From Chrysomallon squamiferum (Eukaryota > Mollusca > Gastropoda > Neomphalida > Peltospiridae): a stretch of DNA of 64,000 nt. The stretch is taken from assembly GCA_012295275.1 (NCBI GenBank), contig CM022674.1:15472953-15536952 (forward strand). Direction: 5' to 3'. The notes under the pieces were generated by a model, which had not been told where the DNA came from, did no database searches, and saw nothing but the letters and a program-made list of their open reading frames with translations. Each line of letters starts with the position of its first letter. Position 1 is the first letter of the stretch. Of this stretch, positions 1 to 62,159 are shown in pieces. Both the position numbers and the translations under genes were made by a program.

Positions 1-699
1 ACGCCAAAACGTGAAGTATAGATTGCTTTTAATAGTTTGTTTCTTCGTTAGATTATTATTATTATTATTATTATTATTATTATTATTATTATTATTATTA
101 TTATTATTATTATTATTAATTTTTACACTGTGGTTTTCCATCATCATTGTTTTTACTTTATAATTAGTACTGATTTATTATTATTTTTTATTACTTTTTA
201 AAAATACTTTTTGTGTTTGTTTATTTGTATTAAATAAATAAATAAATAAAAAGATTAAACCTATCAATAAACGTATCACATTAAAAAGCCGATATAAAAA
301 ATAAATCACATCGGTAAACAAATCAAACTTTAACTTTTTTATTTATTTTTTATTTCTTCCTTTATTTTAAATTTCCTTCTGCCATATTTCAGCAAAAGCA
401 GTAGCTTGCAGTAAATTAATTTAATATCTACCTCTGTAATAAAACCACAAACATTTAATTTTTAATGGATCTGTACGGAAGAAAACCTGGAACGCGGAAC
501 TAGCCGGTCTGTATATTTAACGACTGTAAAAACTAACTGTGTGGTTTTCTATAATCACTGGGTATTAACACGTTCGCCTGTTGTGACTCGTCATGAGGTT
601 AAACAAACAAAAAAAAAGTCTGAGAAGGTTCAAGCTGTGAACTGGGCGTGAGAAGTGAAACAGAAAATTGAAACAGACTGAAAAACGTCACTTGTGAAA

Positions 700-983
700 A
701 TGTTATTGCGTTTGATAATCTGTGGTGAGTTCATTTGTGTGTTTTAGTTCGGTGTTGTTTATTTTTATCTATTCATTTATTAATTAATTTCTTTATTTAT
801 TTATTTTTTTTTTTTTTTTTTTTAATGTTTTAGTATTTGTATTGTCTCAGCTTCAGAGATTTTGTCGCTAGCAAGTCGTCTCCCTTTGATTTTGACCCTA
901 ATCGTCTTCCGAATAACCAGAGACCGCAATTAATCGACGATATCGATATAAACAGCAACGATTATCGTAGAAGATTTAGATAA
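700..983 (+). CDS. Tentative two-exon small gene, left arm
   Basis: I do not recognise this gene. A short first exon could begin with the ATG at 700 (MLLRLIIC, signal-peptide-like) and end at a donor GTGAGT after 724. A second exon starts after CTCAG at 851 and stays open to the stop at 981-983. It encodes a polar peptide with PFDFDPNRLPNN near its start and a basic end, RRRFR. The phases of the two exons do not agree in the simple reading, so the first exon may be wrong. The right-arm copy has one T fewer near 868 (three T instead of four), which changes the frame of the second exon's beginning. The gene converges on the cysteine-rich gene at 1,464-2,154. Confidence 0.4.
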
Positions 984-1463
984 CACACTGCACTGTAATT
1001 ATTATTATTTTGTTGTTGAGTATGAATGTTTTGCATCAGATTCAGCAGTAATGTTTAAGTAAGAGAAAAGAAAATTCTATGTTCTGTTTTGACTAAAACC
1101 ATTTATTATGTGTATATGTGTGTGTGTTTCTTGTTTGTAACTGTTTTTCAGCTATATTATCTGCAAAATAAAAGAAAGAAAAACAAGAAAATAAATAAAT
1201 AAATCATCTTTTATACATATATATATGCATTCAGAGTTTTCAGAGTTTGAAATGCGATGACAAGAAATATAATATGTATGTAAACTTGGAAAGATAGCTG
1301 AAAATAATTCTACGTATACACATACACACACATGCACACATATATACTCGGACAACTATTTAAATGTATCACAACATAATAATATATCATTATTATAATG
1401 TTTTTAAAATGTAAATAAATGAAAAGTTTTGTATTCTGTGAGTATTCGTACCTATTGGTTAAC

Positions 1464-2154
1464 TTATTCACGTACAGGTCTCTGGGAACACCGAATGTTG
1501 ATAGTGGGAATGTTGAGTTGGCAGTTCTTGCAATAGGTCCGCGCCTGATTTGTTAGCCAGAAGTTGACGTCGCGTTGAAGTTGTTGACAGTCAATTCTGT
1601 TAATGAAGTTACAGCCGTTTGACACAAGCTGACAAATTCCCGACCACCTGAAAACAGTTTATAATTATATATAACTGAAAACGGTAACTCATCAGATAGA
1701 TAGACGGACAATGAATAATGACAAAGCAATCCAACGAAGACAAAGACACAGTAAGTTAGTAAGTAACAAAGTAAATACTATTTTACCCTGATTTGGAACT
1801 GGTCTCACTGTGCCTCTTGTCCAAGGTCTTCGTGTTGTACGGCGAGACCATGGCCACCTTGTCGTCTGTCTCGACCACGTCCTTCTTGTAGGCGACATGT
1901 GACTGGTCCAGTGTTGCCATGACGAAGTGGCTGTCTGCCATCTTTGTCTGAAGTGGGTCTCGTAAATCTGGGAATCTGCTGAAACTGGTTTCGGTTAGGG
2001 CGACGATTTCAGTTCGGGTTGTTGGTTCGCTGACTCCAGTTTGAACTGTTTTTTCGCCGATTCCAGTTTTGGTTGAAGCAATCCGTTCTTGAGATACTGG
2101 AAGATTCCACACATCTTCTGAAATTGTCGTCAAATAATGTGCCGTAAAAATGCG
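1464..2154 (-). CDS. Gene with cysteine-rich C-terminus, left arm (two 3' exons)
   Basis: I do not recognise the family. Two exons join cleanly in frame: 2,154-1,787 (acceptor TTTACAG, donor GGTAAAA) and 1,647-1,464 (acceptor TTTTCAG, stop TAA). The first exon encodes about 120 hydrophilic, Thr/Ser/Glu-rich residues with no cysteine. The second encodes about 61 residues with six cysteines (GICQL, NGCNF, IDCQQ, TYCKNCQL, IRCSQ), a spacing that looks like a compact disulphide-bonded secreted domain. The first exon or exons, where a signal peptide would lie, were not identified. Compared with the right-arm copy there is one synonymous change (CTC/CTG) and one Arg/Gly change close to the C-terminus, so both copies look under constraint. 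Confidence 0.62.
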
Positions 2155-59967: not shown

Positions 59968-60658
59968 CGCATTTTTACGGCACATTATTTGACGACAATT
60001 TCAGAAGATGTGTGGAATCTTCCAGTATCTCAAGAACGGATTGCTTCAACCAAAACTGGAATCGGCGAAAAAACAGTTCAAACTGGAGTCAGCGAACCAA
60101 CAACCCGAACTGAAATCGTCGCCCTAACCGAAACCAGTTTCAGCAGATTCCCAGATTTACGAGACCCACTTCAGACAAAGATGGCAGACAGCCACTTCGT
60201 CATGGCAACACTGGACCAGTCACATGTCGCCTACAAGAAGGACGTGGTCGAGACAGACGACAAGGTGGCCATGGTCTCGCCGTACAACACGAAGACCTTG
60301 GACAAGAGGCACAGTGAGACCAGTTCCAAATCAGGGTAAAATAGTATTTACTTTGTTACTTACTAACTTACTGTGTCTTTGTCTTCGTTGGATTGCTTTG
60401 TCATTATTCATTGTCCGTCTATCTATCTGATGAGTTACCGTTTTCAGTTATATATAATTATAAACTGTTTTCAGGTGGTCGGGAATTTGTCAGCTTGTGT
60501 CAAACGGCTGTAACTTCATTAACAGAATTGACTGTCAACAACTTCAACGCGACGTCAACTTCTGGCTAACAAATCAGGCGCGGACCTATTGCAAGAACTG
60601 CCAACTGAACATTCCCACTATCAACATTCGGTGTTCCCAGGGACCTGTACGTGAATAA
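59968..60658 (+). CDS. Gene with cysteine-rich C-terminus, right arm (two 3' exons)
   Basis: This is the mirror of 1,464-2,154. Exons are 59,968-60,335 and 60,475-60,658, joining in phase at KSG|WSGIC. The last exon encodes six cysteines and ends SQGPVRE before TAA. The family is unrecognised and the first exon was not found. Because the two copies differ by a synonymous and a single conservative-site change over the last exon, a real protein is likely. Confidence 0.62.
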
Positions 60659-61135
60659 GTTAACCAATAGGTACGAATACTCACAGAATACAAAACTTTT
60701 CATTTATTTACATTTTAAAAACATTATAATAATGATATATTATTATGTTGTGATACATTTAAATAGTTGTCCGAGTATATATGTGTGCATGTGTGTGTAT
60801 GTGTATACGTAGAATTATTTTCAGCTATCTTTCCAAGTTTACATACATATTATATTTCTTGTCATCGCATTTCAAACTCTGAAAACTCTGAATGCATATA
60901 TATATGTATAAAAGATGATTTATTTATTTATTTTCTTGTTTTTCTTTCTTTTATTTTGCAGATAATATAGCTGAAAAACAGTTACAAACAAGAAACACAC
61001 ACACATATACACATAATAAATGGTTTTAGTCAAAACAGAACATAGAATTTTCTTTTCTCTTACTTAAACATTACTGCTGAATCTGATGCAAAACATTCAT
61101 ACTCAACAACAAAATAATAATTACAGTGCAGTGTG

Positions 61136-61420
61136 TTATCTAAATCTTCTACGATAATCGTTGCTGTTTATATCGATATCGTCGATTAATTGCGGTCTCT
61201 GGTTATTCGGAAGACGATTAGGGTCAAAATCAAAGGGAGACGACTTGCTAGCGACAAATCTCTGAAGCTGAGACAATACAAATACTAAAACATTAAAAAA
61301 AATAAAAAAATAAAAATGAATAAATAAAGAAATTAATTAATAAATGAATAGATAAAAATAAACAACACCGAACTAAAACACACAAATGAACTCACCACAG
61401 ATTATCAAACGCAATAACAT
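61136..61420 (-). CDS. Tentative two-exon small gene, right arm
   Basis: This is the mirror of 700-983. A first exon would be 61,420-61,396 (MLLRLIIC, donor GTGAGT) and a second 61,267-61,136, ending at TAA. Here the T run is three bases, so the second exon reads LQRFVASKSSPFDFDP from its acceptor in phase 0. The join to the first exon is still out of phase, so another first exon may be used. Confidence 0.4.
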
Positions 61421-62159
61421 TTTCACAAGTGACGTTTTTCAGTCTGTTTCAATTTTCTGTTTCACTTCTCACGCCCAGTTCACAGCTTGAACCTTCTCAG
61501 ACTTTTTTTTTGTTTGTTTAACCTCATGACGAGTCACAACAGGTGAACGTGTTAATACCCAGTGATTATAGAAAACCACACAGTTAGTTTTTACAGTCGT
61601 TAAATATACAGACCGGCTAGTTCCGCGTTCCAGGTTTTCTTCCGTACAGATCCATTAAAAATTAAATGTTTGTGGTTTTATTACAGAGGTAGATATTAAA
61701 TTAATTTACTGCAAGCTACTGCTTTTGCTGAAATACGGCAGAAGGAAATTCAAAAAAAAAGGAAGAAATAAAAAATAAATAAAAAAGTTAAAGTTTGATT
61801 TGTTTACCGATGGGATTTATCTTTTATATCGGCTTTTTAATGTGATACGTTTATTGATAGGTTTAATCTTTTTATTTATTTATTTATTTAATACAAATAA
61901 ACAAACACAAAAAGTATTTTTAAAAAGTAATAAAAAATAATAATAAATCAGTACTAATTATAAAGTAAAAACAATGATGATGGAAAACCACAGTGTAAAA
62001 TTAATAATAATAATAATAATAATAATAATAATAATAATAATAATAATAATCTAACGAAGAAACAAACTATTAAAAGCAATCTATACTTCACGTTTTGGCG
62101 TTCTGAAGCTAAAATAAAGAGGCTTTTGTGTGTTCCTAGATGGTCTTAAAAGCAAAGCA
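61421..62159. other. Outer end of the right arm, AT-rich
   Basis: This mirrors 1-699: an AT-rich region with ATTT/AAAT stretches and an AAT triplet tract at about 62,003-62,050. The mirror match ends at 62,101, which is the window edge on the other side. No gene was seen. Confidence 0.6.

What the first reader, a model, noticed from the sequence alone, without database searches (positions are those of the whole stretch)
1..62101. A 62-kb inverted repeat centred on a 200-N gap
Two arms of about 27-28 kb are reverse complements with the same gene order, the same LINE insertion and the same inner duplications. If real, this is one of the larger palindromic immune-gene loci one could find, and palindromes drive gene conversion. 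If not, it is two haplotypes joined head to head: the gap is a round 200 N, both flanks end mid-exon, and the differences look like allelic ones. Both readings fit what I see. A point against simple allelism is that B and B' differ far more than A and A'.
Basis: partly seen in the sequence, partly recalled or inferred. Interest (0 to 1): 0.88.

Follow-up and report, generated by a model that had tools for sequence, protein, structure and literature searches.

The report
Scaffold join mimics a palindrome
The apparent 62-kb mirror-image immune-gene locus is best explained as neighbouring copies of a repeated gene block whose pieces were put into the chromosome scaffold back to front, so it is not evidence for a giant palindrome.

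Summary
The inverted match is in the letters: 1-21231 mirrors 62101-40795 at 97.8%, running on to -395/62510. The inner 12.2 and 7.1 kb are far less alike, and the centre is a 200-N join, so no contiguous sequence links the arms. In 304 kb around it lie seven contig pieces. Among genuine contig ends only two end-to-end overlaps were found: left contig L with contig C (711 columns, 94.1%) and right contig R with contig D (6,053 columns, 97.4%). These are exactly the joins that arise if block R+C (33652-159291) is turned round. Of 64 orientation sets, turning R and C alone is best: same-strand homology rises from 31% to 97.5%; the present layout ranks 59th. PARP12-like domain hits are all + on C1, L and D, and all - on R and C. 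The palindrome is most likely a scaffold orientation error over direct repeats. Whether A and A' are tandem paralogs or alleles stays open: their divergence (0.76%) is like that of the R/D overlap (0.90%). No reads were available. By-catch: an expanded PARP12/ZAP-like cluster (21 strong exon matches).

The parts
1..21231 (+). Arm A on contig L (continues to -395 outside the window)
   Evidence: 97.8% inverted match to 62101-40795; 0.76% substitutions over 21,499 aligned bp, L -395..21231 against R 62510..40795
40795..62101 (-). Arm A' on contig R (continues to 62510)
33452..33651 (.). 200-N scaffold gap between contigs L and R; one of five 200-N gaps (plus one of 2,500 N) in the first 294 kb read
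32745..33451 (+). Right end of contig L: overlaps the right end of contig C (159291-158581, outside the window) end to end, inverted, 711 columns, 94.1%
   Evidence: sister copies in the exon tree, support 0.99
33652..39657 (-). Left end of contig R (B'): overlaps the left end of contig D (165507-159492, outside the window) end to end, inverted, 6,053 columns, 97.4%
22598..30758 (+). Inner unit B of the left side, collinear with B' and D but 5-19% diverged per 500-bp window in the two stretches measured (22598-25777, 26846-30758)
9429..14163 (+). PARP12-like gene in arm A (CCCH/WWE-like exon 9429-11258, PARP catalytic exon 13315-14163)
47827..52642 (-). Mirror copy of that gene in arm A'
22296..27623 (+). 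PARP12-like gene of unit B (its CCCH exon lies in two overlapping reading frames, 22296-23150 and 23126-24244)
32003..33451 (+). 5' part of a PARP12-like gene at the end of contig L; no WWE or PARP hit follows on this side; its frame already closes at 33409
33652..40226 (-). PARP12-like gene of B', its PARP exon (34136-33652) cut by the end of contig R; the copy on contig D is cut at the other end
41462..42848 (-). Decayed LINE-like (non-LTR retrotransposon) fragment in arm A'; the mirror region at about 19.2-20.6 kb lies in the same 98% match
   Evidence: ORF pieces with a YADD-type reverse transcriptase motif (motif recalled; ORFs; no Pfam hit for the 168-aa ORF); match

Best explanation
The palindrome is a product of scaffolding. 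The locus is an array of PARP12-like gene blocks in one direction, broken into short contigs. A block of two contigs, R and C (33652-159291), was placed back to front. Arms A and A' are then direct, not inverted, copies. With the block turned round the order reads C1, C2, L, rc(C), rc(R), D, E. A and A' then lie about 130 kb apart, start to start, in the same direction (my sum from the contig lengths, gaps not counted), as recent tandem paralogs or, for R, possibly as the other allele. Shown: the letters, the gaps, the contig-end overlaps and the strand pattern. Inferred: that these reflect an orientation error and not a real inversion. Left open: paralog or allele.
For: (1) Among the 12 genuine contig ends in the stretch, only two single alignments reach within 20 bp of both ends in overlap geometry: L-right/C-right (0 bp from both ends, 711 columns, 94.1%) and R-left/D-left (0 bp from both ends, 6,053 columns, 97.4%). 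They are exactly the two joins made by turning R+C round. (2) Of 64 orientation sets of seven contigs, turning R and C alone gives the most same-strand homology: 329,277 of 337,634 bp against 106,151 as placed (rank 59); it is also first at two other thresholds. (3) Domain hits on C1, L and D are all +, those on R and C all - (none found on C2 and E). (4) Gene halves fit: L lacks the 3' part and C the 5' part; R lacks the 3' part and D the 5' part. (5) L-end and C-end are sisters in a tree of ten exon copies (0.99), as are R and D (1.00). (6) The turned layout is collinear: A, B, Y1 on L+rc(C) against A', B', Y2 on rc(R)+D. (7) C2 carries, in one contig, the partners of C 114-102 kb and R 76.5-71.6 kb in rc(C)-rc(R) order (68-96% per 1-kb bin). 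(8) E, read further afterwards, continues like rc(R) in the + direction. (9) Short contigs are known to be misoriented in Hi-C scaffolds (PMC7672694, passages seen).
Against: The L/C overlap is short and lies in a conserved exon; at 6.65% substitutions it is too diverged for one haplotype and could be chance paralogy. The L-end frame closes at 33409, so that gene may be broken and joining it to C is no proof of a working gene. At the >=90% threshold the lead of R+C over R+C+E is small (93.4% against 92.8%). Strand counts cannot say which side is wrong; that R+C is the odd block is parsimony. The cluster is not on one strand further out: one search lists - strand exon copies at C10 15.71, 16.25, 16.80 and 11.63 Mb and partial ones at 15.32-15.33 Mb, whose contig status was not examined. 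A real inversion with duplicated breakpoints would show the same geometry. No reads, Hi-C map or second assembly could be examined, and how the scaffold was made is not known.
Confidence: 0.85

Rival explanations
1. Retained haplotig: contig R is the other allele of the A region of contig L (and of the B' region of D) and was scaffolded head to head with it. Haplotypes of this copy-number-variable locus would differ in which B unit follows A. This overlaps with the best explanation in denying the palindrome, so the confidences do not add to one.
For: Substitution levels of A/A' (0.76%), the R/D overlap without its minisatellite (0.90%) and C1/L part 1 (1.01%) are alike, whereas most other pairs in the array have 500-bp window medians of 3.8-12.5%. 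C1 also matches L to its very contig end.
Against: A/A' homology stops inside both contigs at -395/62510; beyond it R 62.5-64 kb matches another place of L instead (-27.8..-25.8 kb, about 98%), which would need a deletion between X copies. R 76.5-98 kb has only short or weak partners in L and C2. Definite paralogs on one contig can be nearly as alike (X2/X3 in L: 1.57%, windows 0-4%), and one Y1/Y2 stretch has a median of 1.4%. C2 and E support R and C as ordered array members.
Confidence: 0.35
2. True palindrome: two inverted arms of about 22 kb with an asymmetric, partly unsequenced centre, kept alike by gene conversion.
For: The letters as given; the sharp step from 0.76% to 8.76% substitutions at the inner edge; mosaic near-identity among X copies.
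Against: The centre is a sequence-free join; R's inner end continues into D, not towards L; strand and overlap evidence favour turning R+C round.
Confidence: 0.06
3. Real inversion of the R+C segment, fixed or heterozygous, whose staggered breaks left inverted duplicates of 0.7 and 6 kb at the two breakpoints.
For: The duplicate geometry at the two breakpoints fits.
Against: Both breakpoints fall exactly on 200-N gaps, and the duplicates end at contig ends, not at boundaries within sequence.
Confidence: 0.05

Closest known systems
Contig orientation error in a scaffold (misoriented short contigs, as described for Hi-C scaffolds in PMC7672694, passages seen)
   Same: Short contigs (R 68 kb, C 57 kb) between gaps of one fixed size; both ends of the block overlap the contigs on the opposite side
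   Different: A block of two contigs, not one; the scaffolding method of this assembly is not known
Haplotypic (false) duplication / retained haplotig
   Same: Allele-like divergence between A and A', and between R and D
   Different: A/A' homology ends inside the contigs; paralogs nearly as alike exist on a single contig; depth not known
Ampliconic palindromes, such as those of mammalian sex chromosomes (recalled, no call)
   Same: Large, closely similar inverted arms in the letters as given
   Different: No contiguous centre, arms of 98% identity, and the inverted orientation itself is doubtful
PARP12 / ZAP (ZC3HAV1) gene family
   Same: PARP catalytic domain closest to PARP12 among solved structures, with CCCH-like and WWE-like regions upstream
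   Different: Many neighbouring copies; CCCH and WWE matches are below the Pfam cut-offs

Membership tests
Large DNA palindrome | Arms are reverse complements of high identity | tested here: met
   21,437 columns at 97.8%
Large DNA palindrome | Both arms and the spacer lie on one contiguous sequence | tested here: not met
   200-N gap at 33452-33651 separates the arms
Large DNA palindrome | Inverted orientation supported by something other than the scaffold | tested here: not met
   Contig-end overlaps and strand consistency favour direct orientation; reads not available
Scaffold orientation error | Block is bounded by scaffold gaps on both sides | tested here: met
   Gaps at 33452 and 159292
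Scaffold orientation error | Block ends match the opposite neighbours end to end | tested here: met
   L-right/C-right (94.1%, the weaker) and R-left/D-left (97.4%)
Scaffold orientation error | Hi-C contacts and spanning reads favour the turned block | not testable with these tools
   No reads held
Retained haplotig | Half read depth on both copies | not testable with these tools
   No reads held
Retained haplotig | Allele-level divergence | tested here: inconclusive
   0.76% for A/A', like the R/D overlap (0.90%), but paralogs on one contig are at 1.57%
Retained haplotig | Homology runs through to contig ends or along the whole contig | tested here: inconclusive
   Not so for A/A', which ends inside both contigs at -395/62510; so for R/D and for C1 against L
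PARP12/ZAP-like gene | PARP catalytic domain nearest PARP12 | tested here: met
   PF00644 5.7e-17; the three best solved chains are PARP12, 7e-36 to 8e-35
PARP12/ZAP-like gene | Five CCCH fingers and WWE domain(s) | tested here: inconclusive
   Two window exons scanned: zf-CCCH_PARP12 0.0042 in the B' exon only; WWE_4 0.0019 and 0.028; all under the gathering cut-offs

The most novel reading that the evidence does not exclude
A true inverted pair of PARP12-like gene blocks with arms of about 22 kb, homogenised by gene conversion, inside a rapidly rearranging array.
Probability: 0.06. Interest if true: 0.5.

Novelty: not a real feature. Interest (0 to 1): 0.15.

Why it matters
It warns against reading palindromes, gene orientation or gene conversion from this stretch as it stands, and shows how contig-end overlaps and strand bookkeeping can expose a misoriented block without reads. 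The cluster itself deserves study: one survey says that invertebrate genomes typically contained one ZAP/PARP12-related gene (PMC8102003, passages seen), whereas this genome shows 21 strong exon matches on one chromosome sequence (some may be alleles or broken copies).

Tried and rejected
Species: not identified. A paper search for 22 chromosomal pseudomolecules (27 papers, 23 listed, listing only) gave no assembly that I could tie to 404.6 Mb, and the 18S search did not complete. Allelic partners of the unique part of R elsewhere in the genome, third copies of A, and a whole-genome gene map: not answered. Protein search with the 609-aa exon: one hit among 5,339 candidates (P0001, 39% over 62% of the query), no organism named. 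Pfam at the default cut-off found a family in 1 of 9 window ORFs. Literature on haplotypic duplication and palindromes, scaffold orientation and expanded PARP12-like genes: listings only, apart from passages of two papers; I saw no paper on this array in them and do not claim that none exists. Left out of the overlap count: five C1-left/C2-right and two E-right/R-right alignments, because C1-left and E-right are limits of my fetch and not contig ends (they lie in satellites, 68-78% identity); that test was not repeated after E was lengthened. Identity alone was rejected as a test of alleles against paralogs, because paralogs on one contig come near the allele-like range. Gap density elsewhere in the genome was not measured.
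Full report
What was given. The window is C10:15472953-15536952 of a 404.6-Mb genome in 22 sequences. The species could not be identified. Coordinates below are window coordinates; negative numbers and numbers above 64000 lie outside the window.

The observation. The inverted match is real in the letters: 1-21231 against 62101-40795, 21,437 columns, 97.8%. It extends to -395/62510 and then stops, as a pair, inside gapless sequence on both sides. All 21,231 bases up to 21231 are covered at >=97%. 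Of the next 12,220 bases of the left side 0 are covered at >=97%, 1,339 at >=90% and 6,253 at >=80%. So the arms are 21-22 kb, not 27-28 kb. The inner parts differ in length (12,220 and 7,143 bp). The centre is one gap of exactly 200 N.

The surroundings. I read 100 kb to the left and 130 kb to the right and later 10 kb more on the right. The first 294 kb hold five gaps of 200 N and one of 2,500 N; the last 10 kb hold none. The pieces are C1 (to -70421), C2 (-70220..-44699), L (-44498..33451), R (33652..101748), C (101949..159291), D (159492..186991) and E (from 189492). C1 and E were cut by my fetch limits.

Contig-end overlaps. I asked which alignments between pieces reach within 20 bp of both contig ends in the geometry of an overlap. 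Nine alignments did. Seven involve an end made by my fetch limits (C1-left, E-right; 68-78% identity) and were left out. Two remain: L-right with C-right (L 32745-33451 = C 159291-158581, 711 columns, 94.1%) and R-left with D-left (R 33652-39657 = D 165507-159492, 6,053 columns, 97.4%). Both reach the ends exactly. These two are the joins created by turning block R+C round. With 12 genuine ends, and the first pair given, the second is one of 42 possible pairs between different contigs (my arithmetic). The R/D overlap is the stronger: 0.90% substitutions without the minisatellite, 1.87% with it. The L/C overlap is weak in identity (47 of 707 bases, 6.65%), though L-end and C-end are sisters in a tree of ten exon copies (support 0.99), as are R and D (1.00).

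Strand bookkeeping. I counted bases in homologous matches between different pieces by relative strand for all 64 orientation sets. As placed, 106,151 of 337,634 bp are on the same strand (31%, rank 59 of 64). Turning R and C alone gives 329,277 (97.5%, rank 1). It is also rank 1 at two other thresholds (93.4% and 96.9%), where the present layout ranks 59 and 54. At the >=90% threshold the runner-up, which turns E too, is close (92.8%), because E shares little sequence at that level. The CCCH, WWE and PARP domain hits on C1, L and D are all +, and those on R and C all -; none were found on C2 and E (done before E was lengthened).

Truncated genes. L ends soon after the CCCH region of a + strand gene, with no WWE or PARP hit; its frame closes at 33409, shortly before the contig end. 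C ends near the start of the CCCH region of a - strand gene (its end aligns with L 32745, about residue 17 of the 200-residue query; the protein match begins at residue 40), with WWE and PARP hits further in. R ends inside the PARP exon of a - strand gene, and D begins inside the 5' exon of its close relative. At the present L|R gap both genes lack their 3' parts, and at the C|D gap both lack their 5' parts. After turning the block, each 3'-less gene meets a 5'-less one.

Collinearity. After turning, L+rc(C) reads A, B, one more gene, Y1; rc(R)+D reads A', B', Y2. C2 holds in one contig the partners of C 114-102 kb and R 76.5-71.6 kb in the order rc(C)-rc(R), at 68-96% per bin. E starts with the partner of C 133.4-132.8 kb (90%), then has a satellite also found at R 98-101.7 kb, then runs like R from about 99.7 down to 90.5 kb at 82-89% in the longer pieces, inverted relative to R as placed and same-strand once R is turned. 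The last 10 kb of E were fetched to see whether E continues like the reversed R, and they do. So the locus looks like an array of blocks in one direction, with R+C the odd one out.

Paralogs or alleles. Substitution levels are: A/A' 0.76%, R/D 0.90%, C1/L 1.01% in part and 3.86% in the rest, X2/X3 on the single contig L 1.57%, Y1/Y2 2.44% in one stretch, C2/C 7.43%, B/B' 8.76%. Medians of 500-bp windows are 0.5% for A/A' and R/D, 0.7% and 2.9% for the two parts of C1/L, 1.4% for X2/X3, 1.4% and 7.1% for two Y stretches, 3.8% for X1/X4, 5.2% for C2/C, 8.1% for B/B', 10.1% for B/D, and 12.5% and 10.6% for E/R. A/A' therefore sits in the allele-like class, but paralogs that share one contig come near it. 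I leave the choice open. If R is an allele, the sharp step from A to B would be a copy-number difference between haplotypes; the outer step at 62510, where R goes on like L -25.8..-27.8 kb (about 98%), would be a second one. If R is a paralog, the steps mark the edges of a recent duplication or conversion tract.

What works here. The genes are PARP12-like: the catalytic exon hits PF00644 and, among solved structures, PARP12 first (7e-36) and ZAP next. CCCH and WWE matches are weak and below the Pfam cut-offs. An antiviral role is inferred from the family (PMC8102003, passages seen), not shown.

Limits. No reads, depth, Hi-C or second assembly. The whole-genome search answered once only. That list also shows - strand exon copies elsewhere (15.71, 16.25, 16.80 and 11.63 Mb, and partial ones at 15.32-15.33 Mb), so one strand is not a rule of the whole cluster, and a real inversion cannot be excluded by sequence alone. 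That both breakpoints fall exactly on gaps is the main reason to prefer an error. Orientation errors of short contigs are a known weakness of Hi-C scaffolds (PMC7672694, passages seen); that this assembly was made with Hi-C is assumed, not shown.

Noticed in passing
C10:15.29-16.80 Mb, with one further copy at 11.63 Mb: 21 strong (>700 bits) matches of the PARP12-like CCCH exon, all on one chromosome sequence (40 of 51 candidates scored, so a lower bound; some may be alleles or broken copies). A paper passage says invertebrate genomes typically contained one ZAP/PARP12-related gene.
   Followed up: partly
4374-5110 / 5682-6416 and 55713-56447 / 57019-57754: Small inverted duplication (arms of about 736 bp, 99.3%) inside each arm, each within one contig: a contiguous mini-palindrome.
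   Followed up: no
38908-39912: 30-bp minisatellite, about 34 copies, inside the exon of the B' gene, with long repetitive open frames on both strands; contig D starts in the same repeat.
   Followed up: no
C1 -82406..-70421 and L -27794..-15899: Contig C1 matches contig L in direct orientation to its very end (about 86-99% per 1-kb bin), so C1 may be a haplotig of L or another array unit placed upstream of C2.
   Followed up: partly
27416-28332: 48/96-bp tandem repeat coding a Ser/Thr-rich tail after the PARP domain of the unit B gene.
   Followed up: no
186992-189491: A gap of 2,500 N among 200-N gaps. Contig C spans the matching place with 3.66 kb against 3.73 kb here, so this gap may be sized and not arbitrary.
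   Followed up: partly
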